From assembly GCF_038397755.1 (NCBI RefSeq), contig NZ_CP151637.1, positions 3,534,001 through 3,598,000 of the forward strand: 64,000 nucleotides of DNA, in the 5' to 3' direction. The translations under genes and the position numbers were made by a program. The notes beneath the pieces are model-generated. The model had not been told where the DNA came from. It did not search any database and was given only the letters and a program-made list of their open reading frames with translations. The number at the start of each line of letters is the position of its first letter. Positions within the stretch are counted from its first letter, which is position 1. The DNA comes from Microbacterium sp. LWH7-1.2. Lineage in GTDB: Bacteria; Actinomycetota; Actinomycetes; Actinomycetales; Microbacteriaceae. Shown in pieces: positions 16,638 through 36,872 of the stretch.

Positions 16638-16752
16638 GCCACGGTACCTCGTCAAAAAACGTTTCGCAAGGCGTTCAGCGAAGAAATTTGAACGATTCAG
16701 TAACAGGGCGATGTGCGTCCCGGGGCGTCGGGGGGCGAGGGTGGGTAAGCCG

Positions 16753-20882: not shown

Positions 20883-20952
20883 GTCGTTCGTCCTGTCCTG
20901 CTCGCCCGGCATGGGCCCGGGGCGGATGCCCCCGCGCGTCCGATCCGACTAT

Positions 20953-21026: not shown

Positions 21027-21089
21027 TTGACGAATCGCGCACCGCCGCCTACTCTTCAATCGAAGCGGTTCGAAATCGAAGCGGTTCGA
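21027..21089 (+). promoter_or_regulatory. Promoter and tandem operators of the second CUT1 importer
   Basis: TTGACG (21027-21032) and TACTCT (21050-21055) are 17 bp apart, the best promoter match in the window. Two copies of the 14-bp palindrome TCGAAGCGGTTCGA follow at 21060-21073 and 21076-21089, centres 16 bp apart, covering the expected transcription start. The AAGCGGTT core fits the LacI-family AAnCGnTT pattern. The same class of site occurs at 29484 near the GH95 and GH42 starts. The 21-kb operon therefore looks LacI-repressed. Apart from this, the 330-bp gap 20883-21213 holds only the regulator-1 operator and the leader ORF. Confidence 0.75.
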
Positions 21090-21148
21090 CGGATGAACCT
21101 CGATCCCGCCCCTCGGTAGAGCGGCAGCCACGTACACGAAGGAGTGAC

Positions 21149-21217
21149 ATGGAACGGTGTCATGCTCACCCGACGGCATCCCGCGCGGATGCCTCGCACC
21201 CGGGTCCGGTCCGATGA
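21149..21217 (+). CDS. Predicted 22-codon leader peptide coupled to the permease
   Basis: ATG at 21149 preceded by GAAGGAG at 21138-21144, the only strong ribosome-binding site in this leader. It reads MERCHAHPTASRADASHPGPVR and ends with TGA at 21215-21217. The stop overlaps the permease ATG (21214) as ATGA, exactly like true gene pairs here. The permease start has no ribosome-binding site of its own. Inside the ORF, GGCATCC and GGATGCC (21175-21192) can form a 7-bp hairpin. It resembles no family I know and may be only a ribosome-loading device. Confidence 0.5.
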   Translation: MERCHAHPTASRADASHPGPVR

Positions 21218-22215
21218 CCACGCAGGCCCAGGCGCAGACCGTCTTCCAGGAGGCGGCGGTCCACAACCTGGAGAAAGCCACGAAGAAGGTACGTGGCCGC
21301 CGGCCGCGGCCCGCGGGGAGCCGGACGTCGTTCACACTGTTCCTCTGCATCGTCCCGTTCCTGATCCTCGCGTTCGTATTCTCGTACCTCCCGCTGTACG
21401 GCTGGATCTATTCGCTGTACGACTACAAGCCGGCGCTCGGTCTCGAGGGCAGCGAGTTCGTCGGGCTCCAGTGGTTCCAGATGCTCGTGAGCTCGCCCAC
21501 CCAGATGGCGCAGATCAGCCAGGTGATGATGAACACCCTCGCGATCAGCTTCCTGGGGATCGCGACATCCGTCCTGCCGCTCTTCTTCGCGATCCTCCTC
21601 AACGAGATCAAGGCGCCGTGGTTCCGCAACTCGGTGCAGACGCTCACGGCCCTCCCGAACTTCATCTCGTGGGTGCTCGTCTACATGATCGCGTTCTCGC
21701 TGTTCTCGAGCTCGGGGCTCGTGAACGACGTGCTCAACGACGCCGGACTGATCACGGCACCGATCAAGTTCCTCGACTCCGACCAGAACGTCTGGCTCAC
21801 GATGACGCTCTGGAGCATCTGGAAGGGGCTGGGCTGGGGGGCGATCATCTACCTCGCCTCGATCGCGGGCATCGACCAGTCGCTCTACGAATCGGCCCGC
21901 ATCGACGGCGCCGGCCGGTTCCAGCTGATGCGGTACATCACGATCCCGCAGTTGATGCCGACCTATCTCGTGCTGCTGCTGCTGTCGATCGCGAACATCC
22001 TCAACAACGGGATGGAGCAGTACTACGTGTTCCAGAACGCGTTCAACAAGGAGTGGATCCAGGTGCTGGATCTGTACGTCTACAACATCGGCATGACCGG
22101 CAACAGCCTGTCGCTCGCCACCGCGGTCGGCATGCTGAAGAGCCTCATCTCGGTCGCCCTTCTGCTCACCGTCAACGCGGTCTCCAAGCGCGTCCGCGGC
22201 GAATCGATCGTCTGA
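21214..22215 (+). CDS. CUT1 ABC permease (LplB-type)
   Basis: 333 residues from the ATG at 21214. An in-frame GTG at 21157 would add 19 residues, but it has no good ribosome-binding site and would overlap the leader ORF. A ~35-residue basic N-terminus precedes six membrane segments, the first being FLCIVPFLILAFVFSYLPLYGW. The EAA loop is ESARIDGAGRFQLMRYITIP. LplB/YteP-type permeases pair with YtcP/LplC-type permeases and large LplA-type binding proteins, exactly the arrangement here. They usually import oligosaccharides. Nearby xyloglucan-type hydrolases suggest the cargo. No ATPase gene is adjacent. Confidence 0.9.
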   Translation: MTTQAQAQTVFQEAAVHNLEKATKKVRGRRPRPAGSRTSFTLFLCIVPFLILAFVFSYLPLYGWIYSLYDYKPALGLEGSEFVGLQWFQMLVSSPTQMAQISQVMMNTLAISFLGIATSVLPLFFAILLNEIKAPWFRNSVQTLTALPNFISWVLVYMIAFSLFSSSGLVNDVLNDAGLITAPIKFLDSDQNVWLTMTLWSIWKGLGWGAIIYLASIAGIDQSLYESARIDGAGRFQLMRYITIPQLMPTYLVLLLLSIANILNNGMEQYYVFQNAFNKEWIQVLDLYVYNIGMTGNSLSLATAVGMLKSLISVALLLTVNAVSKRVRGESIV

Positions 22216-22225
22216 GAGGCCCGAC

Positions 22226-23182
22226 ATGACCACGACGATGACCAAGACGCTCACCACCGCGAAGAAGGGCGACACCTCGGCGCGCTATCGCAGCTCGCCC
22301 GGCGACATCATCTTCCGCCTCCTGAACTACGCCCTCTTCTTCCTCTTCGCGCTGATCTGCGCGTACCCGTTCTACTACCTGATCATCAACTCGGTCAGCG
22401 CGAACGACCTCTCGGCTCTCGGCGACGTGCGCCTGTGGCCGGTCGGATTCCACCTGTCGAACTACGGCCAGGTGTTCCAGCTGCAGGGCCTGCCGATGGC
22501 GACCGTCGTGAGCATCGGCCGCACGGTCATCGGCACGGCTCTCACCGTGCTGGCATCGGCGTTCCTCGGGTTCATGTTCACGCAGACCCGCATGTGGGGG
22601 CGGAAGTTCTGGTACCGCTTCCTCATCATCACGATGTACTTCAGCGCGGGCCTCATCCCCGTGTTCATCATCATGAAGACGCTGGGGCTCACCAACAACT
22701 TCTGGGTCTACGTGCTCCCGTTCGTCGTGCAGCCGTTCAATGTCATCCTCGCCAAGACCTACGTCGAGTCGATGCCGAGGGAGCTGCAGGAGGCCGCCGA
22801 GGTCGACGGCGCCAACATCCTGCAGGTGTTCTTCAGGGTCTACCTGCCGAATATGACGCCGATCCTCGCGACGATCGCGATCTTCAGCGCGGTGACGCAG
22901 TGGAACAGCTTCCAGGACACGCTCATCTACATCACCGACCAGAGTCTGTACACACTGCAGTACCTGCTCTACGTCTTCATCAACCAGGCGTCGAGCCTCG
23001 CGCAGGCGGCGCAGAACGCCGGCGGCGACCTCGGCCAGATCGCCGGGCTCGCCACAGAGCAGACGCCGACGTCCATACGGATGACCGTCTCGGTGCTCGT
23101 CGTCCTGCCCATCATGTTCGTCTACCCCCTGTTCCAGCGCTTCTTCGTGAAGGGCATCATGCTGGGCGCCGTCAAGGGTTGA
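22226..23182 (+). CDS. CUT1 ABC permease (YtcP/LplC-type)
   Basis: 318 residues, starting 10 bp after the LplB-type gene. The Thr/Lys-rich N-terminus (residues 1-30) is cytosolic. The first helix includes LNYALFFLFALICAYPFYYLIINSV. The EAA loop is EAAEVDGANILQVFFRVYLP. It ends FFVKGIMLGAVKG, the characteristic YtcP-type C-terminus. A long loop with INQASSLAQAAQNAGG before the last helix is also usual in this subfamily. It forms the channel with the preceding permease. Confidence 0.92.
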   Translation: MTTTMTKTLTTAKKGDTSARYRSSPGDIIFRLLNYALFFLFALICAYPFYYLIINSVSANDLSALGDVRLWPVGFHLSNYGQVFQLQGLPMATVVSIGRTVIGTALTVLASAFLGFMFTQTRMWGRKFWYRFLIITMYFSAGLIPVFIIMKTLGLTNNFWVYVLPFVVQPFNVILAKTYVESMPRELQEAAEVDGANILQVFFRVYLPNMTPILATIAIFSAVTQWNSFQDTLIYITDQSLYTLQYLLYVFINQASSLAQAAQNAGGDLGQIAGLATEQTPTSIRMTVSVLVVLPIMFVYPLFQRFFVKGIMLGAVKG

Positions 23183-23215
23183 CGGCGGCCACGAACCACC
23201 AAGAAAGGAAGAGCA

Positions 23216-24967
23216 ATGAAGCTTCGAAAGAAGGTGTCCCTGGCCCTCGTGGCGCTCCTCGCGGCCGGCTCACTCGCCTCCTGCACCGCGGGCGGCGGTG
23301 ACGACCAGGGCGCGATCGACCAGTTCCCCGCGAAGTGGGACGAGGAGATCACGATCGACGTCTTCGACAGCGTCGCGAACTACATGGGGATCCAGCCGGG
23401 CTGGTTCGCCAAGGTCGTCAAAGACAAGTTCAACATGAAGCTCAACATCATCGCCCCGAACATCGCGGGTGGCGGTGACACCCTCTACAACACGCGCGTC
23501 GCAGCCGGCGAGCTGGGCGACCTGATCGTCACCCAGAAGGGCGAGAAGCTCGACGAGCTGATCCAGGGTGGCCTAGTGATGGACGCGTCGAACTACTACC
23601 CCGCGATGGAGAGCCTGTCGAAGTACGACCGGGCCGTCGAGCATCTCAACGACGGCGACGACGGCATCTACGGCTTCCCGACCCAGGTGTCGTCGCTGCA
23701 GCCGACCGAGTCGTCGGAAGGCGTGAACCCCACGTACGGAGCATTCGTGCGCTGGGACTACTACAAGGAGCTCGGCTACCCCGAGATCGGCACCCTCGAG
23801 GATCTCTTGCCCGTGCTCGCCGACATGCAGGCGGCGCACCCCACCGGCGACAACGGCCAGCCCACCTACGCCTTCTCGCTGTTCAAGGACTGGGACGGCA
23901 ACATGATGACGACGGCCAAGGCGCCCTCGGCCTACTACGGCTACGAGGAGATCGGCTTCGTGCTCGCAAAGGCCGACGGCTCGGACTACCAGAGCAACCT
24001 CGACCCCGAGGGCGAGTACTTCCGCAACCTGAAGCTGTACTTCGACGCGAACCAGCTCGGACTCGTCGACCCGGAGTCGACGACGCAGAACTACGACACC
24101 ATGTTCACGAAGTTCCAGAACGGCCAGGTGCTGTTCTCGTGGTGGTCGTGGCTGGGACAGTCGGCCTACAACACCGAGCAGAACATGGCCGCCGGCAAGG
24201 GCTTCCAGATCGCGCCGATGGCGGATCAGACGATCTACTCGAACGGCGCCGAGGCCTACGGCGGCAAAGCTGTCTTCGCGATCGGCTCCAAGGCCGAGGA
24301 CCCCGAGCGCATCGCCGCGTTCATCGACTGGCTGTACTCCGCGGAGGGCATCTACGCGAACGCCGGCTCGGTCATGGGCACGGCAGGCCCGCAGGGCCTC
24401 ACGTGGGATCTCAACGACGCGGGCGAGCCCGAGCTCACCGAGCTCGGTCGCCAGGCGCTCCTCGAGGGCGGCGCAACCGTTCCCGAGGAGTGGGGGGGCG
24501 GCACTTTCAAGGACGGCGGCTCACAGATCAACATGTCTGCCGTGCTCCTGATCGAGACCGATACCGAGACGGGGCTCCCGTACAGCTACACCTCCTGGCC
24601 GACGTACCAGGCCGGAATCGCCAACCCGCTGACCGAGGACTGGTCGGCGAAGATGGGCGGCGCGACCTCCACCATGGAGTACCTGCAGGCGAACGACCAG
24701 CTGCTCGTCGCGCCGGGCGCGAGCTTCGAGACTCCCGCCGACACGTCTGAGATCGAGACCCTGCGCAACCAGATCAAGGAGATCATCAAGCAGTACTCGT
24801 GGCAGATGGTGTTCGCCGAGAACGAGGCGCAGTTCGAGTCGCTCCGCGACGAGCTCATCGAGACCGCGAACGGCCTCGGCTTCGAGCAGGTGCTCGAGTT
24901 CGACATGGCCAACGCGAAGTTGCAGAACGACGCGCGCGAGGCCGTCGTGAAGGAGTTCGCAGGCTAG
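23216..24967 (+). CDS. LplA/YtcQ-type large extracellular sugar-binding lipoprotein
   Basis: 583 residues, the larger size typical of LplA/YtcQ-type binding proteins. Start ATG at 23216 with AAGGAAGAG upstream. Signal peptide MKLRKKVSLALVALLAAGSL and lipobox LASC (Cys23). The mature part has ITIDVFDSVANYMGIQPGWF and many surface aromatics (FSWWSWLGQSAY, YSYTSWPTYQAG) suited to stacking on an oligosaccharide. It completes the operon with the two permeases, and a strong hairpin follows its stop. The ligand is inferred to be a xyloglucan-type oligosaccharide from the flanking hydrolases. Confidence 0.9.
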   Translation: MKLRKKVSLALVALLAAGSLASCTAGGGDDQGAIDQFPAKWDEEITIDVFDSVANYMGIQPGWFAKVVKDKFNMKLNIIAPNIAGGGDTLYNTRVAAGELGDLIVTQKGEKLDELIQGGLVMDASNYYPAMESLSKYDRAVEHLNDGDDGIYGFPTQVSSLQPTESSEGVNPTYGAFVRWDYYKELGYPEIGTLEDLLPVLADMQAAHPTGDNGQPTYAFSLFKDWDGNMMTTAKAPSAYYGYEEIGFVLAKADGSDYQSNLDPEGEYFRNLKLYFDANQLGLVDPESTTQNYDTMFTKFQNGQVLFSWWSWLGQSAYNTEQNMAAGKGFQIAPMADQTIYSNGAEAYGGKAVFAIGSKAEDPERIAAFIDWLYSAEGIYANAGSVMGTAGPQGLTWDLNDAGEPELTELGRQALLEGGATVPEEWGGGTFKDGGSQINMSAVLLIETDTETGLPYSYTSWPTYQAGIANPLTEDWSAKMGGATSTMEYLQANDQLLVAPGASFETPADTSEIETLRNQIKEIIKQYSWQMVFAENEAQFESLRDELIETANGLGFEQVLEFDMANAKLQNDAREAVVKEFAG

Positions 24968-24982
24968 CACGCCGGTACGAAG

Positions 24983-25017
24983 CGAAGGGCTCGGGATGCC
25001 GCATCCCGAGCCCTTCG
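24983..25017 (+). terminator. Rho-independent-type hairpin after the LplA-type gene
   Basis: Arms 24983-24999 and 25001-25017 are perfectly complementary over 17 bp around one unpaired C, 16 nt after the stop codon at 24967. There is no U-tract beyond TCGTCATG, as is common in high-GC actinobacteria. Confidence 0.75.
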
Positions 25018-25073
25018 TCATGCCCTCGTGCACTCCGCCCCGCTTCGTCGCGCCGCTCCGCCTCGCCGGTTCA

Positions 25074-25123
25074 GGTGGCGCAACACGCGGAGTGACTCTC
25101 GCGATTCCGCGTGTTGAGCCACC
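25074..25123. repeat. Intergenic inverted repeat (18-bp arms)
   Basis: Arms 25074-25091 and 25106-25123 are complementary except for one position, with a 14-nt loop. It lies in the 269-bp gap between the convergent LplA-type and YesL genes, beyond the terminator. It could end the minus-strand transcript or be an extragenic palindrome. The rest of this gap shows no gene. Confidence 0.55.
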
Positions 25124-25236
25124 CGAGTGGGTCGTTGGTGCGCGCGAACGCGAGCGGGAATGAGCCGGGACCGCGGGAGGAAGGCGGGGACGGATGCTGC
25201 GGGCCGCGGCATCCGTCACCACGAAAGCCCGAGGGG

Positions 25237-25842
25237 TCAGGCCTCGTGGCGGGTGAAGACGCTGCGGAAGATGAAGGCCGTGGCGTAGGCGCCGACGGAG
25301 AAGCCGATCGTCGCCACGAGGATCGCGACGGGCGGGAACAGGATCGTCAGGGCGACCGCCGTCACGGGGATCACGAGCGCCCCCAGGGTGCGCACCGGCT
25401 CCGCGGCAGGCAGCAGCAGCGCGTTCTTGAGGGTCTGGCGCACACTGTTCTTGAAGTACGCGACCTGCGCCATCGCGAACAGGAACGCGGCGAAGAGGTA
25501 GACGGCGCCGATCACGGCGAGGGTCCCGGCGACTCCCGCGAACAGGGCGGAGTGCGAGAACCAGAACACGCTCGAGAAGCCGAGCAGCACCGCGGGAAGC
25601 AGCAGGCACAGCATCAGCACCGTCGCGCGGCCGAAGTTCGCCCGGAACGCGGGGAAGAAGTCCTTGAGGGGGCGTCCGCTCTCGTCGTCGGAGTAGCGGA
25701 TCGCCACCTCGTACAGCGCGCTCGTCGCGGCGCCGATCGTCACGATCGGCAGGCACACGACGATGTAGAGAAGGTTGAGCCCGACGAACGTCAGGAATGT
25801 GGAGAAGCCTCCGAGCGCGCGGCTGTCGGGGTCGATCCTCAT
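25237..25842 (-). CDS. YesL/DUF624 family membrane protein
   Basis: 201 residues with about five hydrophobic segments. The N-terminus is typical of YesL: a short leader, then FLTFVGLNLLYIVVCLPIVTIG followed by ATSALYEVAIRY and a loop with DDESGRPLKDFFPAFRANF. YesL-like proteins are common in carbohydrate operons, and their molecular role is not established. The ATG at 25842 is 7 bp after the LacI stop, so the gene is the third in the GH95-LacI-YesL operon. Another, more divergent relative sits in the galactoside operon (12588-13232). Confidence 0.85.
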   Translation of the reverse strand: MRIDPDSRALGGFSTFLTFVGLNLLYIVVCLPIVTIGAATSALYEVAIRYSDDESGRPLKDFFPAFRANFGRATVLMLCLLLPAVLLGFSSVFWFSHSALFAGVAGTLAVIGAVYLFAAFLFAMAQVAYFKNSVRQTLKNALLLPAAEPVRTLGALVIPVTAVALTILFPPVAILVATIGFSVGAYATAFIFRSVFTRHEA

Positions 25843-25849
25843 GCGGTGT

Positions 25850-26839
25850 TCACAGCGCCGCCGGCGCTCCGGTCAGCGCCGGCGGCAGCAGCCGCACGGC
25901 GGGCTTCGCGCCGCTCGCCAGGATCTCGCAGATCATGTCGGTCGCGGCCGCGCCGATCGCCTCGGCGGGCACGGCGATGCTGTCGGCGAGCCCCGGCACC
26001 GAGCGCGCCACGTCGTCCGGGCACAGCGCCAGGATGGCGGGCTCGTCGCCCCGCTGACGACCGCGTTGGGCGATCGCCGTCGCGACATGGGGGAGTGCGC
26101 CCTCGTTGTGCACGAAGAAGCCGGTGATGCTCGGGTCCTCCGTCATGACGCCGTCGACCGTGGCGATGGACTCGGCCGAGCTCGGGCACGCGTGCACCGT
26201 GCCGTGAACCTCGTTCGCCTCGCACGCCGCGAGGAAGCCATGCGCCAGGCGTTCGGCGTAGGCGGTGTGGCGCGCCATGACCTCCGGCGGCGAGCCGATC
26301 AGGGCGAGCCGGCGATGCCCGAGCGCGACGAGCCTGTCGACGGCGAGCCAGCCCGCGGCCTCGAAATCGAAGTCGACGCAGGGGATCGCGCGGCGACCCG
26401 CGGGCAGGCCGATGAGCACGCTGGGGTGGTCGAGGCCCGACAGCGTGTCGATGCGGGGGTCGTCGGACTCCACGTCCATGACCAGCAGTGCGTCGACCAT
26501 CGATCCCTTGGCCGCCCGCTGCAGCGCCTTGGAGTCGTCGCTCGCGATCAGCAGGATGTCGTAGCCGTGCTTGCGCGCCTGTGTGACGACGCCCGTGACC
26601 ACCTGCATGACGACGTGCACGTCGACGCCCGTGCGCAGCGGCGCCTGCAGACCGATGACGTTCGTCGAGCGGGACGCCAGCGAGCGCGCGCCCGCGTGCG
26701 GGCTGAAGCCCAGGCTGTCGATCGCCTTCTCGACGCGGTCGCGCGTCTCCTGCGAGATGGCCCGCTTGCCGCTCATCACGTACGACACCGTCGAGATCGA
26801 CACGCCCGCCTTCTGCGCGACGTCCGCGATCGTCACCAT
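25850..26839 (-). CDS. LacI-family transcriptional regulator (regulator 2)
   Basis: 329 residues. The ATG at 26839 overlaps the GH95 stop (ATGGTGA) and is preceded by a GGGGGA ribosome-binding site inside GH95. The helix-turn-helix is [22 protein letters not shown]. The recognition helix differs from regulator 1 at SYVM versus SNAL. The hinge is [14 protein letters not shown] and the sensor domain follows. Its position between GH95 and YesL, and the class-B operators (TCGAAGCGSTTCGA-like) at 21060, 21076 and 29484, make it the probable repressor of the importer and of both hydrolase operons. Confidence 0.92.
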
Positions 26840-29454
26840 GAGATCCCCCGCTCTCCTCGTTCGATCACCCGCGTGGTTCCGGGTGCGAGCTCGTATGTTC
26901 CGATCGAACCGTCCGGCCCGTGCACACTCATTGTGACCCCTCGCGTCCCCGCCCGAAGACGCGCCCGCACGAGTTCTCCGCCGGCCCATTCCACATCGAC
27001 CGACACGCCGCCACGGGAACGGATGCCGCGCACCCGGCCGTCCGGCCACTCCGAGGGCAGCGCGGGCAGCAGCCGCAGCGTGATGCGGGCCGGCTCGGCG
27101 CCGGACGCGGCAGGCTCGTCGAACGACTGCACGAGGGCCTCGGCGATGGCCGCGGTCACGCCGAGGTTGCCGTCGATCTGGTACGGCGGGTGCGCGCTGA
27201 AGAGGTTCGGGTAGACGCCTCCGCGGTGCGCCTCCGAGCTCTCCTCGGCCGGACGCAGCGCGAGCCGCAGCTGCGCGTGCACGGCCGCGCCGTCGCCCAG
27301 GCGGGCCTGCATGGCGGCGCGCCACGCGAGCGCCCAGCCCGTCGACTCCGGACCGCGCAGACGGATGGACTCGGATGCCGCGCGCGCGAGGCCGGGCGTC
27401 GCCTCCGGGGTGATCTGCGCCAGCGGGAACAAGCCCACGAGGTGCGAGAGGTGGCGGTGGAGGGGCTCCGCCTCGACGCGCTCGCGATCCCACTCGAGCA
27501 GGTCGCCGCGCGCCGAGACCTGGGGATCGGGGAGGGCGTCTGTGAGCTGGGTGAGTTCCGAGATCCACGGCTCGTCGAGCTCGAGCACGTCTGCGGCCGC
27601 GCGGCAGACGGCGGCCAGCTCGCGCAGCAGGGCGACGTCCATGGTCGCCGACACCGCGACGCCGCGCTCGCGCCCTTCGTCGTCCAGGTAGCGGTTCTCG
27701 GGCGATGTCGAAGGGCTCGTCCAGGCGCGCTCGCCGTCGGTCTGGATCCACGACCGCGCGAACTCCGCTGCCGACGCCAGCACCGGCCAGGCCTCGTCGC
27801 GCAGGTACGAGCGGTCGCGGCCGAACGCGTAGTGCTCCCACAGGTGCAGCGCGAGCCAGACGCCCCCGAGCGACCAGTTCGCCCACGCCGGGTCGCCGTG
27901 ACCGGCGCCGACGGGTGCGGCGAACGCCCAGGCGTCCGAGTTGTGGTGCGCGACCCAGCCGTTCGCACCGTACAGCTCGCGGGCGACCACCGGGCCCGTG
28001 GTCTCGGAGAGCCGCCGGGTGAACCGCAGCAGCGGCTCGTGACACTCGGCGAGGTCGGTCGTCTCGGCGGGCCAGTATGCCATCTGCGTGTTGATGTTGA
28101 GGGTGTAGGCGCTCGACCAGGCACCGGGGAGCTCCGCGTTCCACAGCCCCTGGAGAGTGACCGGCAGCCCGCCCGGCTGCGACGACGCGATCAGCAGGTA
28201 CCGGCCGTAGTGGAACATGAGGGCCGCGAGAGCGGGGTCGTCACGCTCCTGCGCGCGGTGGACGCGAGCCACGGTGTCGAGCGCCTCGACGTCGTCCGCC
28301 GGCGGCAGTTCCAGTGCGCAGCGCGCGTAGAGCTCGCCGTGCGCCGCTTCGTGGGTGCTGCGCAGATCGGCGGCGGTCGCGTGGACATCGAAGGAGCCGC
28401 GGATGCCGCGCAGCAGCGCTGCCGCGTGGCCGAGCGCATCGCGGGCATCGGCCGGGTCGCCGGGCAGCGAGGGCGCGGTGGCGGTGGCGACCGCGAAGAG
28501 GTGCGTCGTCGCGGGGGCGCCGACCAGCGCGCCGTCGACGACCTCGGAGGAGCCGCGGGCCTGCACCACGATCGCGCCGTGGCGGCCGTGCTTCCCGTCG
28601 TAGCGGATGGGCTCGGCGGGATCCTCATGAGCCGGAGCGACGTCGACAGGAAGCCACCACTCGGTGGCGAGGTCGCCGCCTGCCGAGCGCGGCACCGAGC
28701 GCGGGCGCAGCAGCGAACCGACCACGAGGCGCACCCGCACCGGCTCGCTCGCCGTGACCTCGTGCATGAGCGCGCCGGTCACCAGGTCCGCCCAGGTGCG
28801 GTGACGCACGTCCACGCCGTCGATCGTGTACTCGTGCGTCGCGACGCCGGTGGAGAGGTCCAGACGCCGCCCGTAAACCCGAGGCGTTTCGACTCGCTCG
28901 TTCCTCGCTCGCTCAACGACCGAAGAAGGTTCTCGCCCGTTCCTCGCTCGCTCAACGACCGAAGGTTCTCGCTCGTTCCTCGCTCGCTCAACGACCGGAG
29001 ACGGTTCTCGCTCGTTGAGCGGTTCAGCGCCGGCGAGCGAGTCGGAACGCCCCGGCACCGGCTGCGACCCCGGGGCGGCAGCATCCGTCTCCACCGTCAG
29101 GTCGACCCAGCCCAGCGGGAGGTAGGCCTGCACCCAGGGCGCCTGCATGCGCTTCAGAAGCTCTTCGGCGGCGTCCGGATCGTCGGCGTCGATGGCGGCT
29201 CGTACCGCGGCCAGCGCTTCGGGCCCGCGGTCGGCGACGCCCTCGAGCGGGTCCGCGCCGGCATGGCCCGACCAGGCCGTGATGTCGTTCAGCCACAGCC
29301 GTTCGCCGCCGGAAAGCCCCGCGCACATCGCGCCCCGCGCTCCGTTGCCGACCGGGTACGCCTCGAGCCACCGTGACGCGGGCGACGAGGCGCGCAGGGC
29401 GTGGAGAGCCTCGGAAGGGGCCTGGGGGGTCGCATCATCGCGGCGCGTGGACAT
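26833..29454 (-). CDS. GH95 alpha-L-fucosidase-family glycoside hydrolase
   Basis: Inverting hydrolase family best known for 1,2-alpha-L-fucosidases acting on fucosylated glycans including xyloglucan; some members are alpha-L-galactosidases. 873 residues from the ATG at 29454, cytosolic. Family motifs are [12 protein letters not shown] and [11 protein letters not shown] at the N-terminus, [13 protein letters not shown] in the barrel, the SPENRY block with Glu586 as likely general acid, and [20 protein letters not shown] with Asp761. The count is close to that of characterised members (566/766 in the bifidobacterial enzyme). About residues 134-190 are a foreign-looking repeat with [12 protein letters not shown] units. 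The start is nearly leaderless: TATACT lies 12 nt upstream. Confidence 0.88.
28883..29051. repeat. Interspersed repeat cluster inside the GH95 coding sequence
   Basis: Three copies of CGTTCCTCGCTCGCTCAACG begin at 28899, 28938 and 28974. An inverted relative (CGTTGAGCGG...GAGTCGGAACGCC) starts at 29013. Spacings of 39, 36 and 39 bp are all multiples of three, so the frame stays open and encodes [16 protein letters not shown] repeats. The cluster is bounded by GGCGTTTCGACT on the left and AGTCGGAACGCC on the right. These are the same terminal sequences as the intergenic array at 36564-36848. Confidence 0.85.
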
Positions 29455-29466
29455 CGTCACAGTCGT

Positions 29467-29498
29467 AGTATACCGTCTCAGTGTTGAAGCGCTTCGAA
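29467..29498. promoter_or_regulatory. Divergent promoter and operator for GH95 and GH42-GH31-GH3
   Basis: TATACT on the minus strand (29472-29467) is a good -10 box 12 nt before the GH95 ATG. The 14-bp palindrome TTGAAGCGCTTCGA (29484-29497) has the AAGCGCTT core of the class-B operators and sits upstream of that promoter. It would also lie near the start of the plus-strand transcript. The region agrees with control of both transcripts by regulator 2. Confidence 0.6.
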
Positions 29499-29569
29499 AG
29501 ATCGACGCCCTTCGCGCCCGCAATCCCATGACCGCCCTATCGAAACTCAGCGAAGAGGTTCTCCGCTCC

Positions 29570-31618
29570 ATGGCCACCATCCGCGACCCGCGCCGCGTCG
29601 ACGCGTTCTCCGAGATCACGCGCGACCTCGGCATCTGCTTCGGCGGTGACTACAACCCCGAGCAGTGGCCCCGCGAGGTGTGGCGCGAGGACGTCGAGCT
29701 CATGAACCGTGCCGGCGTCAACCTCGTCACGGTGGGTGTCTTCAGCTGGGCGCGCCTGGAGCCCACCCCCGGCGAGTACGACTTCGAATGGCTCGACGAG
29801 GTGCTCGACCTGTTGCACGGGCACGGGATCGCCGTGGATCTGGCCACGCCGACCGCGTCGCCGCCGCCGTGGCTCGGCATCCTTCACCCCGAGACCCTTC
29901 CGGTGAATCCCGACGGCGTCCGGCTCGCGGCGGGGTCGCGCAACCAGTTCACGCCGGCGTCGCGCGTGTACCGCGAGAAGGCCCTCGCGATCGCGACCGC
30001 CCTCGCCGAGCGCTACGCGGCGCACCCCGCGGTGCGGATGTGGCACATCGGCAACGAGTTCGGGCAGATCGACTTCGGCGACGAGGCGGCCCGCGAGTTC
30101 CGGCTGTGGTTGCGCGAGCGCTACGGCTCGATCGACGCGCTCAACGAGGCATGGGGCACGCTCGTGTGGTCGCAGCAGTACCGCGACTTCGACGAGATCG
30201 TGCCGCCGCGCCGCATGCCGTACCTCGTCAACCCGGCGCAGTCGCTGGACTTCCGCCGGTACACGTCGTGGGCGCTGCAGCGCGTGTTCGCCGAGCAGCG
30301 CGACGCCATCCGCGCGACCGGTGCGGCGCAGCCGGTCACGACGAACTTCATGGGCTTCGAGCCGCTCACCGACCTGTGGGAGTGGGCGGGCGATGTCGAC
30401 GTCGTCGCCGACGACCAGTACCCCGACCACGCCGCCACGACGTCGTCGTCCGACATCGCGCTCGTGCAGGACCTCATGCGCTCGCTCGGGCACGGCCGGC
30501 CGTGGGTGCTCATGGAGCAGGCGATGAGCGCGACCTCGTGGCGCCCGCACAACCTGCCCAAGAGCCGCGACCGCGCACGCCTCGACTCGCTGCAGGCCGT
30601 CGCACGCGGTGCCGACGCCATCTGCTTCTTCCAGTGGCGTCAGGCGCGCACCGGCGCCGAGCGCTTCCACTCCGCGATGCTGCCGCACGCCGGCGCCGAC
30701 TCCGAGGTGTTCGCGACCACGTGCGCGCTGGGCGCCGACCTGCGGCGACTGCGACCGGTGGTCGGCGGGCGGGTCGAGGCATCCGTCGCCCTGCTCTTCG
30801 ACTGGCCGTCGCGATGGGCCGCCGAAGAGCCGGGGCGCCCGACACAGCGCCTCGACACCCTCGGGCAGGTGCAGCGTTGGCACCGGGCGCTCTGGCGCCG
30901 CGGCATCGCGGTCGATCTCGTGCGTCCGGGCGCCGACCTGTCGGCGTACCGCACGGTGCTCGTGCCGCACACCTACATCGTCGAGACGGATGCTGCCGCC
31001 ACCCTCCGCGCGGCGGTCGAGCGCGGTGCGAGCCTCGTGGTCGGGCCGTTCTCCGGCGTCGCAGACGTGAACGCCGGCATCCTCGCCGGGCGCTCGCCGG
31101 TGCTGCTGCGCGATCTCCTCGGCGTGAGCGGCGAGGAGTGGGTCGGCCTTCCGGACGAGCCCACGCCCCTCGCGGTGGAGCAGTCCTGGGCGAGCGCGCC
31201 GGCTCGGGTCGAGGCATCCGTGCTGGGTGAGCGCCTGCGTACCGACGGCGCCGACGTGCTCGCGCGGTTCGGCACCGGCCACCTGCACGGCGCTCCTGCG
31301 ATCACCCGCCACCGCGCCGGCGCCGGCACGGCTTGGTACCTCGGCGCCGTCGTGTCGGACGACGCGCTCGCCGCCGTGCTCGACGACGCCCTCGACGCCG
31401 CCGGTGTCACGGGCGTCCTGCCCGACCGCGTGCTGCCCGACGACGTCGAGGCCGTGCAGCGCGGTGAGGCCCTCTTCCTCCTCAACCACGGCGAGGCGAC
31501 GCGGCACGTCACCGTGCCCGGACCTCGCCGGGATCTCCTGTCCGACGCGGACGTCGACGGGCGGCTCACGCTCGCCCCCGGCGCCGCCATGGTGCTCATC
31601 GAAAGGCACGCAGAGTGA
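29570..31618 (+). CDS. GH42 beta-galactosidase (second copy)
   Basis: Cytosolic beta-galactosidase, 682 residues from the ATG at 29570 ([13 protein letters not shown]) with GAAGAGG upstream; an ATG at 29528 has no such signal. [15 protein letters not shown] is the GH42 signature. Acid/base Glu163 is in WHIGNEFG and nucleophile Glu316 in [12 protein letters not shown]. It is related to but distinct from the GH42 at 10475. Its stop overlaps the GH31 GTG start. In xyloglucan breakdown this enzyme would remove galactose from L-type side chains, after GH95 removes fucose. Confidence 0.94.
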
Positions 31619-33993
31619 AGTTCACCGATGGCTACTGGCTCACCAGACCCGGCCTCGCCCCGCTGTACGCGGTCGAGGTCGACGACATCCGCGTCGACGA
31701 GGCGGCGGGCACGATGACCGTGTACGCCCCGACCGCCGCGATCCGCGACAGGGGCGACACCCTCAACCGCGCGATGCTCACCGTCACGTTCTCGGCGCCC
31801 GCGCCGGGCGTGGTCAAGGTGCGGGTCGAGCGTCACGCGGGCGCCGTGCATCGCGGGCCGGACTTCGAGGTCTTCGGCGCGGAGGGCTTCCGCCCGGGCG
31901 TCACGGTCGACGAGAACGAAGGCGTCCTCGATGCCGGTCCCGTCAAGGTGCGGGTCGCACGCGCGGCGGGCCAGTGGCGCGTCGACTTCATCGATGCCGA
32001 CGGGCGCGTGCTCACGAGCTCCCTCCCGCGGTCGATCGGGCACGTGACCGACACCACGGGCAAGAACGGCACCGCCGCCACAGCCGGGACGGCCGGCACC
32101 GCCGGCACCGCCGCGGGCGGCACGAAGCCCACGTGGGTGCACCAGCAGCTGAGCATCGAGCCGGGCGAGCGCGTCTACGGTCTCGGCGAGCGCTTCGGCG
32201 CGTTCGTCAAGAACGGCCAGGTCGTCGACACGTGGAACGCCGACGGCGGCACGTCGAGCGAGCAGGCGTACAAGAACGTGCCGTTCTACCTGACCTCTCG
32301 TGGCTATGGCGTCTTCGTCGACCACCCCGAGAACGTGTCGTTCGAGGTCGGCAGCGAGGTCAACTCGCGCGTGCAGTTCTCGGTGGGCGGCGAGTCCCTG
32401 GACTACTACGTCATCGGCGGCCCCGAACCCAAGGACGTGCTGCGTCGCTACACCGCGCTCACCGGCCGGCCGGCGCGCGTGCCGGCGTGGTCGTTCGGAC
32501 TGTGGCTCACGACATCCTTCACCGCCAGCTACGACGAAGACACCGTCAGCGCGTTCGTCGACGGCATGGCAGAGCGCGACATCCCGCTCTCGGTGTTCCA
32601 CTACGACTGCTTCTGGATGCGCGAGTTCCAGTGGAGCGACTTCGAGTGGGACTCCCGCGCATTCCATGACCCGGTGGGGCAGATCGCCCGCATGCACGAG
32701 CGCGACGTGCACGTGTCGCTGTGGATCAACCCCTACATCGCGCAGCGCTCGGCGCTGTTCCGCGAGGCGGCCGACAACGGCTACCTCCTCAAGCGCACCG
32801 ACGGCAGCGTGTGGCAGTGGGACATGTGGCAGGCGGGCATGGGGCTCGTGGATTTCACGAACCCGGATGCCGCGGACTGGTACGTCGAGAAGCTGCAGGG
32901 TCTGCTCGACCAGGGCGTCGACGCGTTCAAGACGGATTTCGGCGAGCGGATCCCGGTCGAGGGCGTCGTGTGGCACGACGGCTCCGACCCGCACCGCATG
33001 CACAACTACTACGCGAAGCTCTACAACGAGGTCGTGTTCCGCGCGCTCGAGCGGCACCACGGCGTCGGCGACGCCGTCGTGTTCGCCCGTTCCGCGACGG
33101 CCGGCTCGCAGCAGTTCCCCGTGCACTGGGGCGGCGACAACGACTCGACGTTCCTGTCGATGGCCGAGTCGCTGCGCGGCGGCCTCTCGCTCGCGATGTC
33201 GGGCTTCGGCTACTGGAGCCACGACATCGGCGGCTTCGAGGGCACCCCCGACCCTGGCCTGTTCAAGCGCTGGCTCGCCTTCGGCCTGCTGTCGTCGCAC
33301 TCGCGGCTGCACGGCTCGTCGTCGGTGCGCGTGCCGTGGGCGTTCGACGACGAGGCGGTCGACGTCGCCCGTGCGTTCACGAAGCTCAAGATGCGGCTCA
33401 TGCCGTACCTCGCGGGCGCGGCCGAGCAGGCGCATCGCTGCGGGACGCCGATGATGCGCCCGATGGCGCTCGAGTTCCCCGGGGACCGCTCGGGCTTCGA
33501 CGCCGACACCCAGTACATGCTGGGCGACGCCCTGCTGGTCGCGCCGGTCTTCACCGCCGACGGCAGCGTGGAGTACTACGTGCCCGAGGGGGAGTGGACC
33601 TCGCTCCTCGACGGATCCGTGGTCGACGGGCGCCGATGGGTCTCCGAGACCCACGGGTACGACTCCGTGCCGCTGCGGGTGCGCCCCGGAACGGTGCTCC
33701 CGTTCGGCGCCGACGACAGCCGCCCCGACTACGACTGGTCCGACGGCGTGACCCTGCGCTGCTTCGAGCTTCCCGACGGCTACGACCGCGAGACGCGGGT
33801 GCCGGGCCACGACGCCAGGGGGTCCATCGACGGCGTCGGCGCCACCACGTTCCGCGTGCGGCGTGAGGGCTCCATGATCATCGCGACGACGGACGACGCA
33901 CACGCCCCGTGGGCGCTGCAGGTGGGTGACCGGATCGCCCGCGCCGCAGCATCCGGAGAGATCCGTCTCGAGATCGAGGAGAACGCACGATGA
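31615..33993 (+). CDS. GH31 alpha-xylosidase (YicI-type)
   Basis: Removes alpha-1,6-linked xylose from xyloglucan oligosaccharides such as isoprimeverose units. 792 residues from a GTG overlapping the GH42 stop by 4 bp. The motif YDCFWMREFQWSDFEWD closely matches the xylose-selective pocket of E. coli YicI. Nucleophile Asp441 is in KTDFGERIP and acid/base Asp508 in HWGGDNDSTF. There is no signal peptide. Oddity: around residues 150-170 there is a low-complexity stretch of Gly-Thr-Ala repeats, encoded by GCCGGCACC-like 9-mers, in the N-terminal beta domain. Followed by GH3 with a 4-bp overlap. Confidence 0.93.
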   Translation: MKFTDGYWLTRPGLAPLYAVEVDDIRVDEAAGTMTVYAPTAAIRDRGDTLNRAMLTVTFSAPAPGVVKVRVERHAGAVHRGPDFEVFGAEGFRPGVTVDENEGVLDAGPVKVRVARAAGQWRVDFIDADGRVLTSSLPRSIGHVTDTTGKNGTAATAGTAGTAGTAAGGTKPTWVHQQLSIEPGERVYGLGERFGAFVKNGQVVDTWNADGGTSSEQAYKNVPFYLTSRGYGVFVDHPENVSFEVGSEVNSRVQFSVGGESLDYYVIGGPEPKDVLRRYTALTGRPARVPAWSFGLWLTTSFTASYDEDTVSAFVDGMAERDIPLSVFHYDCFWMREFQWSDFEWDSRAFHDPVGQIARMHERDVHVSLWINPYIAQRSALFREAADNGYLLKRTDGSVWQWDMWQAGMGLVDFTNPDAADWYVEKLQGLLDQGVDAFKTDFGERIPVEGVVWHDGSDPHRMHNYYAKLYNEVVFRALERHHGVGDAVVFARSATAGSQQFPVHWGGDNDSTFLSMAESLRGGLSLAMSGFGYWSHDIGGFEGTPDPGLFKRWLAFGLLSSHSRLHGSSSVRVPWAFDDEAVDVARAFTKLKMRLMPYLAGAAEQAHRCGTPMMRPMALEFPGDRSGFDADTQYMLGDALLVAPVFTADGSVEYYVPEGEWTSLLDGSVVDGRRWVSETHGYDSVPLRVRPGTVLPFGADDSRPDYDWSDGVTLRCFELPDGYDRETRVPGHDARGSIDGVGATTFRVRREGSMIIATTDDAHAPWALQVGDRIARAAASGEIRLEIEENAR

Positions 33994-36545
33994 GCGACAC
34001 GATCACGGATGCTGCGACCACGATGCCCGCGCAGGACCAGGCGCCGGGGCGGCCGTTGTTCCGGCAGGTCGACCAGCCGCTCGCCGCGCGCGCTCGCGAC
34101 CTCCTCAGCCGGCTGACGCCCGAGGAGCGCATCGCGATGCTGCACCAGGCGGCGCCGGCCGTCGAGCGTCTCGGGGTGTCCGCGTGGCACACCGGATGCG
34201 AGGCGCTGCACGGCGTCGCGTGGCTCGGGCGTGCGACGGTGTTCCCGCAGCCGGTGGGACTCGCCGCCACGTGGGACACCGACCTCGTGGAGAAGGTGGG
34301 CGAGGTCGCTGCGGTCGAGGTGCGCGCGAAGCGCGCCGAGAACCCGCGGGTGAGCCTCAACGTGTGGGCTCCGGTCGTCAACACGCTGCGCCACCCGGGC
34401 TGGGGGCGCAACGAGGAGGGCTACTCCGAGGACCCGCACGTGACCGCGGTCTTCGGCACCGCGTACTCGCGGGGCTTGCGCGGCGACCACCCGCGCGTGT
34501 GGCGCACCGTCCCCGCGCTCAAGCACTTCCTCGCCTACAACAACGAGACCGACCGCTCCACGACGTCGTCCGAGATGTCGCTGCGCACCCTCCACGAGGA
34601 GGAGCTTCCGGCCTTCCGCGGCGCGATCGAGGAGGGCGTCGCGGGCGGCATCATGCTGGCGTACAACCGCGTGAACGGCGTCCCCGCGCACACGCAGCCC
34701 GAGCTCGTCGAGGAGGCGCGGAGCTGGTCGGACGAGTCGATCGCGGTGGTGTCCGATGCCGGCGCCCCGTCCTTCCTCGTCACCACGCAGCGCTCCCAGC
34801 CCGATCACGTCCACGCCGCGGCAGCTCTGGTGACCTCGGGGCTCGACTCGTTCACCGACAACGACGCCGACGCGTCACCCACGATCGGCTACGTGACGGA
34901 GGCGCTCGCCGCCGGGCTGCTCACCGCGGACGACGTCGACCAGGCCGTGCTGCGGCTGCTCGAGCTGCGCATCCGCACCGGCGAGTTCGACGGCGACGCC
35001 GACCCGTACGGGGGGATCGGCGTCGACGCCATCGACGCGCCGGCGGCCCGTGAACTCGCCCGGGAGGCGGTGGCCCGCTCGGTCGTCGTGCTGCGGAACG
35101 ACGCCGGCGTGCTGCCGCTCTCCCGGGCGTCCCGCATCGCGGTCGTCGGGCCGCTCGCCGACCTCGTGCTCACGGACTGGTACGCGGGCACCCCGCCGTA
35201 CGCGGTCGGCATCGGCGCGGCCGCCGCCGAGCGCTTCGGCGAGGCTGAGGTCGTGACTGGCGCCGACACCATCGCGCTCCGGGCAACCTCGAACGGCCGC
35301 TACATCGTGTCGAGCGCTGACGGCTCCGTGGTCGAGGCGGCCGGCGACGCCGCCGAGGGCGACGCCCTGTTCGACGTGACCGACTGGGGCGACGGCATCC
35401 TGACCCTCCGATCCCACGCGAGCGGACTGCTGCTCACCGGAGGGAAGTGGCCCATGCGCGCCGACGCCGCGCGCGTCGGCGGGTGGGTGGTGCAGGAGAG
35501 CTACCGCAAGCACGTCCACGCGGACGGCACGTGGTCGCTGCTGCACCTCGGCTCGGGACGGTGGCTGCGCGTGTTCCGCGACTCGGGTCTGCTGGCGGCC
35601 GAGGCGGTCACGCTCGACGACGCCGAGCGCTTCGGTGTGCGTGTGGTGCGATCGGGCGCTGCGGCGGTCGCGGAGGCGGCCGCGCGCGCCGACGCCGTCG
35701 TCGTCGCGGTCGGCAACGACCCCCACCTCAACGGCCGCGAGACGGAGGACCGGCCGCACCTGCGCCTGCCCGCCGCGTGGGCCGAGGTGTGGCGCGCCGC
35801 GCGCGAGGCCAACCCGCGCGCCGTGCTGACGATCGTGTCGAGCTACCCCTACGTGCTCGACGACGTCGAGGCCGACACCGTCGTCTGGTCGAGCCACGGC
35901 GGCCAGGAGCTCGGCCACGGGGTTATCGACGTGCTCTCGGGCGACCGCGAGCCGTCGGGCCGCCTCTCTCAGAGCTGGCCGGCCACTGAGGAGCAGGCGG
36001 GCGATCTGTTCGACTACGACACACTCCGCCAGGGAGCGACCTACCGCCACCAGCCCGACGAACCTGCGTTCGCGTTCGGCCACGGCCTCACGTACACGTC
36101 CGTCGCCTACGAGTCGGTCTCGTTGACGGGTGCTGCGGTCCCCGCGCCCGCACCGACGCATCGGCACTCCGGCTTCGCGCCGCGGGCCGACGAGTCCGTG
36201 GTGGCCGCGGTGGTGCGGGTCCGCAACACCGGCGACCGCGACGCAGAGGAGCTCGTGCAGCTGTACGCGCTGCCGGCGGCGGATCTTCCGCTGCCCACAC
36301 CGCGCCGGCTGCTCGTGGCGTACCGCAGGGTGCGGCTCGCCCCCGGCGAGACCCGCGACGTGGAGCTGTCGTTCTCGTCCGCGCGCCTCGCGGTGTGGGA
36401 CGACGCCGTGCGTCTCCCCGGCGCTGTCGACGACTGGCTCCACCAGGGTGCGCTGCGGGTCCAGCCTGGGTCGTATGCCGTGGCCGCAGGCCCGTCGGCG
36501 TGGGACCTCCCCGTCTGGACTGACCTGGAGGTCACCACGGGCTGA
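33990..36545 (+). CDS. GH3 beta-glycosidase (beta-glucosidase/xylosidase) with inserted beta domain
   Basis: Retaining exo-hydrolase, cytosolic, 851 residues. The TIM-like domain contains WGRNEEGYSEDP and PALKHFLAYNN. The nucleophile is Asp256 in AVVSDAGAPSF. Then come the alpha/beta sandwich (ARSVVVLRNDAGVLPL) and a C-terminal fibronectin-III-like domain ending near residue 850. About residues 425-550 hold an extra beta-rich insert with TSNGRYIVSS, GDGILTLRSHASG and LLHLGSGRWLRVF. This looks like a fascin/beta-trefoil-type module where many GH3 enzymes carry PA14. It likely trims the glucan backbone once GH31 has removed xylose. It closes the operon, and a repeat array follows. Confidence 0.92.
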   Translation: MSDTITDAATTMPAQDQAPGRPLFRQVDQPLAARARDLLSRLTPEERIAMLHQAAPAVERLGVSAWHTGCEALHGVAWLGRATVFPQPVGLAATWDTDLVEKVGEVAAVEVRAKRAENPRVSLNVWAPVVNTLRHPGWGRNEEGYSEDPHVTAVFGTAYSRGLRGDHPRVWRTVPALKHFLAYNNETDRSTTSSEMSLRTLHEEELPAFRGAIEEGVAGGIMLAYNRVNGVPAHTQPELVEEARSWSDESIAVVSDAGAPSFLVTTQRSQPDHVHAAAALVTSGLDSFTDNDADASPTIGYVTEALAAGLLTADDVDQAVLRLLELRIRTGEFDGDADPYGGIGVDAIDAPAARELAREAVARSVVVLRNDAGVLPLSRASRIAVVGPLADLVLTDWYAGTPPYAVGIGAAAAERFGEAEVVTGADTIALRATSNGRYIVSSADGSVVEAAGDAAEGDALFDVTDWGDGILTLRSHASGLLLTGGKWPMRADAARVGGWVVQESYRKHVHADGTWSLLHLGSGRWLRVFRDSGLLAAEAVTLDDAERFGVRVVRSGAAAVAEAAARADAVVVAVGNDPHLNGRETEDRPHLRLPAAWAEVWRAAREANPRAVLTIVSSYPYVLDDVEADTVVWSSHGGQELGHGVIDVLSGDREPSGRLSQSWPATEEQAGDLFDYDTLRQGATYRHQPDEPAFAFGHGLTYTSVAYESVSLTGAAVPAPAPTHRHSGFAPRADESVVAAVVRVRNTGDRDAEELVQLYALPAADLPLPTPRRLLVAYRRVRLAPGETRDVELSFSSARLAVWDDAVRLPGAVDDWLHQGALRVQPGSYAVAAGPSAWDLPVWTDLEVTTG

Positions 36546-36563
36546 GGTCGCCGGGACGCTCGG

Positions 36564-36848
36564 GGCGTTTCGACTACGGGCGCTGGAGCGCCCTCCGCTC
36601 AACGACCGGCGATGTGTGTGCCGGTCGTTGAGCGAGCGCGCCCCCGCTTCCCGGTCGAGCGCGCGCGCCCCGTTTCCCGGTCGTTGAGCGAGCGCGGCCC
36701 CGTTTCCCGGTCGTTGAGCGAGCCTGCGAGTCGAAACGCGCGGGGGAACGCGGCCCCCTCCCGGTCGTTGAGCGAGCCTGCGAGTCGAAACGCGCGGGGG
36801 AACACGGCCCCCTCCCGGTCGTTGAGCGAGCTTGCGAGTCGAAACGCC
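36564..36848. repeat. Tandem GC-rich repeat array filling a 321-bp intergenic gap
   Basis: The gap between the convergent GH3 and PmoA-family genes has no gene. It holds repeats of CCGGTCGTTGAGCGAGC, often followed by (C/T)TGCGAGTCGAAACGC. Copies begin at 36621, 36677, 36707, 36761 and 36815, with a degenerate copy near 36651. The last three are spaced exactly 54 bp; 36677 to 36707 is 30 bp. An inverted copy (GGCGTTTCGACT...CTCAACGACCGG) opens the array at 36564. The core and both ends match the cluster inside GH95. Confidence 0.9.
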
Positions 36849-36872
36849 CTGAGCCCGGCGCAGGGCTCAGGG
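36847..36872. terminator. Hairpin at the end of the PmoA-family gene
   Basis: CCCTGAGCCC (36847-36856) and GGGCTCAGGG (36863-36872) form a perfect 10-bp stem with a 6-nt loop. It overlaps the stop codon of the minus-strand gene and would act after both convergent genes. Confidence 0.6.

What the first reader, a model, noticed from the sequence alone, without database searches (positions are those of the whole stretch)
21027..36545. Probable xyloglucan-oligosaccharide utilisation locus
GH95 (fucose), GH42 (galactose), GH31 of the YicI type with the DCFWM...QWSDFEW xylosidase pocket (xylose) and GH3 (glucose backbone) are exactly the exo-activities needed to dismantle an XLFG-type oligosaccharide. 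All lack signal peptides and sit next to an oligosaccharide-type CUT1 importer with the same operator class. No endo-xyloglucanase is visible, so the cell would scavenge oligomers. This order in an actinobacterium, with a regulator inside the operon, is to my knowledge not a described standard locus.
Basis: partly seen in the sequence, partly recalled or inferred. Interest (0 to 1): 0.8.

Follow-up and report, generated by a model that had tools for sequence, protein, structure and literature searches.

The report
Xyloglucan-oligosaccharide utilisation regulon in Microbacterium
This stretch of a Microbacterium genome encodes an importer, four intracellular enzymes and a repressor that together fit the uptake and dismantling of plant xyloglucan fragments, and the same DNA switch also sits in front of a distant gene for the secreted enzyme that cuts xyloglucan.

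Summary
Confirmed and extended. The window (Microbacterium, close to M. trichothecenolyticum) holds a CUT1 importer operon, a minus-strand GH95-LacI-MusI operon and a divergent GH42-GH31-GH3 operon. GH31 is a YicI-type alpha-xylosidase by curated score; the four enzymes lack signal-like N-termini. LacI-type operators (TCGAAGCG/CTTCGA class) mark the importer and enzyme promoters. All seven GH74 genes found in two Microbacteriaceae samples carry the operator (six exact); in two genomes GH74 is clustered with GH31. In 198 sampled Microbacterium genomes, all 5 with GH74 are among the 21 with the locus. The operator recurs in 77 of 80 GH31 loci, nearly all actinobacterial (162 sites; reversed pattern 1). 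The enzyme set matches the proven Ruminiclostridium cellulolyticum system (importer, GH42, GH31, GH3), with LacI control instead of XygS/XygR and GH95 added. New variant of a known kind. Substrates, inducer and repressor-operator pairing are inferred; nothing was assayed.

The parts
21060..21073 (+). LacI-type operator copy 1 (TCGAAGCGGTTCGA), importer promoter
   Evidence: a site with 0-1 mismatch before perm1 in 18 of 19 testable Microbacterium loci, two more being truncated
21076..21089 (+). LacI-type operator copy 2, starting 16 nt after copy 1 starts
21149..21217 (+). 22-codon leader ORF with strong ribosome-binding site (CACGAAGGAGTGACATG), stop overlapping the permease start (ATGA)
   Evidence: a short leader ORF meeting the permease start in 19 of 22 loci tested; function unknown
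21214..22215 (+). CUT1 ABC permease 1
   Evidence: PF00528 E=3.6e-19; start re-set from 21157 to ATG 21214
22226..23182 (+). CUT1 ABC permease 2
   Evidence: PF00528 E=3e-9
23216..24967 (+). lipoprotein solute-binding protein, large-oligosaccharide (cluster G-like) fold
25237..25842 (-). DUF624/MusI-family membrane protein, possible accessory importer subunit
   Evidence: PF04854 E=4.8e-14; NCBIfam MusI family 88 bits, below cut-off 160
25850..26839 (-). LacI-family regulator (LacI-B), proposed local repressor
   Evidence: LacI-type HTH at N-terminus; [11 protein letters not shown] kept in all 21 Microbacterium loci
26833..29454 (-). GH95 alpha-L-fucosidase (or alpha-L-galactosidase), cytoplasmic
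   Evidence: PF22124 E=7.4e-145; PDB best 2RDY E=5e-153
29484..29497 (+). LacI-type operator (TTGAAGCGCTTCGA) between divergent GH95 and GH42
   Evidence: a site with 0-1 mismatch at the equivalent place in 21 of 21 Microbacterium loci, in L150 and L164 within the N-terminal edge of the GH42 match
29528..31618 (+). GH42 beta-galactosidase, cytoplasmic
   Evidence: PF02449 E=2.8e-140; PDB best 9TA3, 4UCF
31615..33993 (+). GH31 YicI-type alpha-xylosidase, cytoplasmic
   Evidence: NCBIfam PRK10658 1162 bits vs cut-off 606; PDB best YicI 1WE5 E=1e-259
33990..36545 (+). GH3 beta-glycosidase, presumed beta-glucosidase on the backbone, cytoplasmic
   Evidence: PF00933 and PF01915; best PDB matches are beta-xylosidases, isoprimeverose-producing enzyme also matched

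Best explanation
A LacI-controlled xyloglucan regulon. A secreted GH74 enzyme, encoded about 300 kb away under the same operator, cuts xyloglucan outside the cell. The lipoprotein and two permeases (with an ATPase encoded elsewhere and perhaps the MusI-like protein) import the oligosaccharides intact. In the cytoplasm GH95 removes terminal fucose, GH42 removes galactose, and GH31 and GH3 alternately remove xylose and glucose from the non-reducing end. LacI-B, encoded between GH95 and MusI, represses the importer promoter, the divergent enzyme promoter (hence itself) and GH74 until an oligosaccharide or breakdown product releases it. Shown here: gene content, lack of signal-like N-termini, operator positions and their conservation, GH74 co-occurrence and linkage. 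Inferred: substrates, order of reactions, repressor identity and inducer.
For: GH31 is a YicI-type alpha-xylosidase. GH74 xyloglucanase (PDB 6P2O E=9e-249) has an exact operator 76 nt upstream; the genome has four exact places in all (two at the importer, GH74, GH29). GH74 occurs in 5 of 198 Microbacterium genomes, all 5 among the 21 with the locus (hypergeometric 8e-6, not corrected for relatedness). Two further GH74 genes in a family sample also carry the operator. In G075 GH74 is divergent from the importer, in G419 it is about 5 kb from a GH95-GH42-GH31 cluster; in Kribbella L079, L085, L087 and Virgisporangium L104 it lies in the fetched GH31 neighbourhood. Operator: 162 sites in 77 of 80 GH31 loci against 1 for the reversed pattern and a mean of 1.5, maximum 21, for 40 permuted palindromes. 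Of 21 loci, 16 have GH95+GH42, 4 GH42 only, 1 neither, 0 GH95 alone. R. cellulolyticum Gal42A, Xyl31A and Glu3A act in this order on such oligosaccharides (PMC4780118).
Against: No enzyme, binding or expression data. GH3 matches beta-xylosidases best (202 bits) and isoprimeverose-producing enzyme only at 141 bits. The GH95 polymorphic position is Thr, which PMC8245568 found non-diagnostic for fucose versus L-galactose. SBP sequence match to 9PMY is weak (E=0.002), and 9PMY is not among the 50 rows shown by either structure comparison. 16 of 21 locus-bearing genomes have no GH74 hit, and only 1 of 21 has GH12. The operator is not exclusive: one exact and one single-mismatch site precede a GH29/GH27-like operon and a single-mismatch site precedes a PL11 gene; none of the nine other GH29 loci fetched (two in this genome, seven in relatives; 53-58% identity) has a site. 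In G322 the enzyme promoter has no site with 0-1 mismatch. L168 has none before the importer. In the wider set, L044 and L048 show GH95 without a detected GH42. No ATPase gene in the locus.
Confidence: 0.88

Rival explanations
1. The locus serves small alpha-xylosides such as isoprimeverose, and mixed beta-galactosides, with xyloglucan polymer use incidental.
For: YicI-type GH31 enzymes act on isoprimeverose (shown for Xyl31A of R. cellulolyticum); 16 of 21 locus-bearing genomes lack a GH74 hit.
Against: The binding protein has the large-oligosaccharide fold, and the GH74 gene shares the exact operator and is clustered with GH31 genes in two Microbacteriaceae genomes.
Confidence: 0.06
2. The substrate is another plant oligosaccharide, with GH95 as alpha-L-galactosidase and GH3 as beta-xylosidase (a xylan or pectin side chain).
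For: GH3 best matches are beta-xylosidases; GH95 includes alpha-L-galactosidases (4UFC hit; named so in PMC8245568); a PL11 rhamnogalacturonan lyase gene has a single-mismatch site.
Against: A YicI-type alpha-xylosidase has no known role in xylan or pectin breakdown (established knowledge); the exact shared operator points to GH74 xyloglucanase.
Confidence: 0.04
3. The neighbouring LacI-A (19872-20912) rather than LacI-B controls the importer promoter (a rival about the regulator only).
For: LacI-A is divergent from the importer and shares its intergenic region.
Against: LacI-A was seen beside the importer in only 6 of 21 Microbacterium loci (window, L153, L156, L157, L159, L160; some others are truncated there), while operators persist without it and LacI-B is present in all 21. 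The HTH recognition regions differ.
Confidence: 0.1

Closest known systems
Ruminiclostridium cellulolyticum xyloglucan-oligosaccharide locus (Ccel_2451 onward, XygS/XygR; PMC4780118)
   Same: Cytoplasmic GH42, GH31 and GH3 beside a divergent importer cluster of two permeases and a binding protein; extracellular xyloglucanases including Xgh74A encoded in the genome; Gal42A, Xyl31A, Glu3A and SBP2458 tested biochemically there.
   Different: Two-component AraC-type activator instead of a LacI repressor; GH95 genes exist in that genome but are not named in the cluster; cellulosomal endo-enzymes. Fig. 12 of that paper shows clusters in other prokaryotes, its legend mentioning alpha-fucosidase genes, but the figure is not held and the species could not be read.
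Anaerocellum bescii Athe_2052-2057 xyloglucan importer locus (PMC12710961)
   Same: CUT1 importer with a ~60 kDa cluster G binding protein and no ATPase nearby, GH31 alpha-xylosidase in the locus, GH74 domain enzyme elsewhere; 9PMY is the best PDB sequence match of the window protein.
   Different: Proposed GH42 and fucosidase not in the same cluster; AraC-family regulators (AxuRS, XylQ; PMC8579813, passages).
Xanthomonas XyGUL (PMC8245568)
   Same: GH74, GH31, GH95 and a beta-galactosidase for fucosylated xyloglucan.
   Different: TonB-dependent transport, GH35 instead of GH42, an acetylesterase.
CelR regulon of actinobacteria (PMC3377646)
   Same: LacI-family repressor with palindromic operators coupling an importer, an intracellular glucosidase and unlinked glycoside hydrolases; in one organism a xyloglucanase is thought to be CelR-regulated.
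   Different: Different palindromes (for example AGGGAGCGCTCTCT in the passage read) and cellobiose as signal.

Membership tests
Gram-positive xyloglucan-oligosaccharide utilisation locus (R. cellulolyticum type) | CUT1 importer with dedicated binding protein next to cytoplasmic GH42, GH31 and GH3 | tested here: met
Gram-positive xyloglucan-oligosaccharide utilisation locus (R. cellulolyticum type) | XygS/XygR two-component regulation | tested here: not met
   the nine genes of 21214-36545 include no histidine kinase or AraC gene; a LacI gene instead
Gram-positive xyloglucan-oligosaccharide utilisation locus (R. cellulolyticum type) | binding of XXXG by the solute-binding protein | not testable with these tools
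   needs calorimetry
Gram-positive xyloglucan-oligosaccharide utilisation locus (R. cellulolyticum type) | secreted endo-xyloglucanase in the same genome | tested here: met
   GH74 at G000:C1:3870384-3873023, hydrophobic N-terminus
YicI-type GH31 alpha-xylosidase | equivalog score over curated cut-off and conserved pocket | tested here: met
   1162 vs 606 bits; DCFWM, KTDFGER and WGGD present and aligned to YicI
YicI-type GH31 alpha-xylosidase | activity on alpha-xylosides | not testable with these tools
   needs enzyme assay
Cluster G solute-binding proteins | fold shared with FusA, AlgQ1/2 | tested here: met
Cluster G solute-binding proteins | calcium-binding DPNGNG motif | tested here: not met
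   region reads HPTGDNG; the motif is also lacking in Athe_2052
TonB-type XyGUL | TonB-dependent outer-membrane transporter in the locus | tested here: not met
   the transport genes of the locus are ABC permeases and a lipoprotein

The most novel reading that the evidence does not exclude
Actinobacteria share a LacI-family xyloglucan/alpha-xyloside regulon not described in the papers I could search, marked by TCGAAGCG/CTTCGA operators, that joins importers, YicI-type GH31 and accessory GH95/GH42/GH3 or GH1 genes and, where present, an often unlinked secreted GH74; its importer transcript also begins with a conserved, translationally coupled leader ORF in Microbacterium and some relatives.
Probability: 0.65. 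Interest if true: 0.6.

Novelty: new variant of a known kind. Interest (0 to 1): 0.52.

Why it matters
Xyloglucan is a major primary-wall hemicellulose, and its use by soil actinobacteria is little described in the papers I could search. The operator gives a ready, testable marker for finding xyloglucan users and missing regulon members across the phylum, and explains how an apparently incomplete locus is joined to an unlinked secreted endo-enzyme.

Tried and rejected
Own-genome operator count: I first took from the listing, which is cut and left out a minus-strand exact match, that GH74 had the only other exact site. Searches corrected this: a fourth exact place precedes a GH29/GH27-like operon. 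I then looked for GH29 in 22 locus-bearing genomes: 8 of 22 have a hit, the best outside this genome at 58% identity, and none of the nine other fetched GH29 loci has a site, so GH29 membership in the regulon is left open. My odds did not change, since the GH74 evidence rests on seven genomes.

First gene calls by longest ORF gave false long plus-strand frames over GH95 and over-long GH42 and permease starts; corrected with protein matches. A first leader-ORF script had a pattern fault (it took GTG inside the ribosome-binding site as the start) and gave 3 of 23; one search replaces it. NCBIfam gave no family for GH95, GH42 or the binding protein. The one GH5-type gene found in the genome (PF00150) is most like a chain named putative beta-xylosidase GE32, then exo-1,3-glucanases and endoglucanases, so it was not taken as an endo-xyloglucanase. 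GH9, GH16 and GH44 were not searched. Operator-like two-mismatch sites at 28879 and 36560 lie in or beside a REP-like repeat and were set aside. 9PMY is not among the 50 rows shown, so the structural comparison with the xyloglucan-binding protein itself was not made.

Literature: searches (20 of 97 papers listed; 11 of 11; 20 of 78; 10 of 10; 20 of 59; 2 of 2; 20 of 52) listed no paper describing this locus in actinobacteria by title or abstract start. (operator strings) matched 441 papers and listed 20, none holding the 12-mer. Most subscription papers are not held. The XygS/XygR paper is not held; what I say of it comes from passages in PMC8579813 and PMC8576529. The MusI search listed no primary paper; the MusI role is recalled.
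Full report
What is there. The window is G000:C1:3534001-3598000 of a single-contig 4,446,169-base genome; its GH31 protein is 96% identical to that of Microbacterium trichothecenolyticum DSM 8608. The genes are listed in parts. They form an importer operon (permease, permease, lipoprotein; plus strand), a minus-strand operon GH95-LacI-MusI whose genes overlap or nearly touch, and a divergent plus-strand operon GH42-GH31-GH3 whose genes overlap.

Enzymes. GH31 scores 1162 bits on the curated alpha-xylosidase model (cut-off 606) and is closest to YicI in the PDB. GH95 is closest to BH0842 (2RDY) and also matches chains named alpha-fucosidase and 4UFC, which PMC8245568 names as an alpha-L-galactosidase. 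GH42 matches beta-galactosidases. GH3 matches beta-xylosidases best and the isoprimeverose-producing enzymes more weakly, so its glucosidase role rests on context. Short motifs around the expected catalytic positions are present in all four (which residues are catalytic is recalled, except that PMC8245568 gives the GH95 ones). None of the four has a strongly hydrophobic N-terminus, unlike the lipoprotein and GH74.

Operators and the missing endo-enzyme. TCGAAGCGNTTCGA occurs without mismatch at four places in the genome (the pattern read backwards gives 1 forward and 1 reverse match): the two importer sites, C1:3870294-3870307 and C1:757594-757607. The third lies 76 nt upstream of an 880-residue protein with a hydrophobic N-terminus that matches GH74 xyloglucanases (6P2O, E=8.6e-249; 17 of the 21 PDB matches cover the GH74 region, the other four only a C-terminal stretch). 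It starts about 300 kb beyond the end of the locus. So an endo-xyloglucanase exists and is probably co-regulated. The fourth site, with a single-mismatch one 58 nt away, precedes a GH29 alpha-L-fucosidase followed by a GH27-like gene, which may be a further member; none of nine other fetched GH29 loci has a site.

Conservation test within the genus. Of 198 sampled Microbacterium genomes, 5 have GH74 at E<=1e-30. All 21 loci were read, one in two pieces; perm2, SBP, MusI, LacI-B, GH31 and GH3 are present in all. The five GH74 genomes are all among the 21 (hypergeometric 8.4e-6); four of the five are close relatives, so this is about two independent events. Sites with 0-1 mismatch: importer promoter 18 of 19 (L155 and L158 truncated; L168 has none), enzyme promoter 21 of 21 (in L150 and L164 inside the N-terminal edge of the GH42 match), GH74 5 of 5 exact. 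In G075 the GH74 gene is divergent from the importer in the same cluster. A family sample of 299 genomes, own included, gave two further GH74 genes: G419, exact site, with GH95-GH42-GH31-LacI about 5 kb away on the same 35-kb contig (its GH31 is 65% identical); and G322, one mismatch, 223 nt upstream of the match, with a 77% GH31 on another contig. In G322 the enzyme promoter shows no site with 0-1 mismatch, against strict conservation.

Conservation test beyond the genus. In the 80 best loci around GH31 relatives (a capped list; nearly all actinobacterial, one Anaerolinea), the operator with 0-1 mismatch occurs 162 times in 77 loci; L072, L097 and L109 have none. The reversed pattern occurs once; 40 permuted palindromes average 1.5 sites, maximum 21. 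Several of these loci come from the same genomes as the 21 above (five pairs checked share sequence), so the two sets are not independent. GH74 lies in the fetched neighbourhood in Kribbella L079, L085, L087 and Virgisporangium L104. [11 protein letters not shown] is kept in the LacI of all 21 Microbacterium loci, and most GH31-side LacI regulators elsewhere keep S-T-V-S-Y. Many loci use a smaller SBP_bac_1 binding protein and a GH1 enzyme beside GH31, so importer types differ.

Nested gene content. In the 21 Microbacterium loci GH95+GH42 are found in 16, GH42 alone in 4, neither in 1 and GH95 alone in 0. This fits fucose capping galactose capping xylose. In the wider set L044 and L048 show GH95 without a detected GH42, so the rule is not absolute or another galactosidase serves there.

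How it most likely works. As in Best explanation. The closest proven precedent is R. cellulolyticum, where Gal42A removes galactose first, then Xyl31A and Glu3A alternate, after import by a high-affinity importer (PMC4780118; outline, passages, sections 8 and 9 and part 1 of 23 read). This also answers the worry that GH42 is unusual for xyloglucan. What differs here is LacI-type control, GH95 in the locus, and GH74 in trans under the same operator.

Limits. The operator class also precedes the GH29 operon and, with one mismatch, a PL11 gene, so other LacI regulators may use similar sites, or the regulon may be wider. 16 of 21 locus genomes have no GH74 hit and only G075 has GH12. Regulator-operator pairing, inducer and substrates are inferred. 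Other papers: PMC8245568, PMC8579813, PMC10766802, PMC3377646 and PMC8576529 passages only; the rest search listing only.

Noticed in passing
window 21149-21217: A leader ORF of 8-23 codons (22 here) with a strong ribosome-binding site ends on or beside the permease start in 19 of 22 loci tested (stop/start overlap of the ATGA kind in 17), including Tessaracoccus L054 and another Microbacteriaceae genus (L181). Peptides are poorly conserved, often with Arg/His. Role unknown.
   Followed up: partly
window 28841-29060 and about 36560-36850: A REP-like repeat (GGTCGTTGAGCGAGCG...) is present in frame, about three copies, inside the GH95 coding sequence and is also clustered in the gap after GH3; it explains operator-like weak matches there.
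   Followed up: partly
L111:5382-8429 (G000:C1 about 754-757 kb): A GH29 alpha-L-fucosidase and GH27-like gene pair has one exact and one single-mismatch operator upstream (L111:8595 and 8653): possible further regulon member, not seen in relatives.
   Followed up: partly
L112:7966-10725: A PL11 rhamnogalacturonan lyase gene with hydrophobic N-terminus has a single-mismatch operator upstream.
   Followed up: no
window 33990-36545, residues about 425-556: The GH3 carries an insert of about 130 residues within its C-terminal domain, at a place where some GH3 enzymes carry PA14 (recalled); it looks beta-trefoil-like by eye only, and no separate Pfam hit covers it.
   Followed up: no
window 10475-16642: A second CUT1 importer with a GH42 (10475-12619) and a DUF624 protein lies on the minus strand, probably a separate galactoside locus.
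   Followed up: no
L151:1238-4767 and L181:13012-16825: Two relatives (G075, G322) show two tandem matches to the lipoprotein gene at the importer, perhaps for different oligosaccharides.
   Followed up: no
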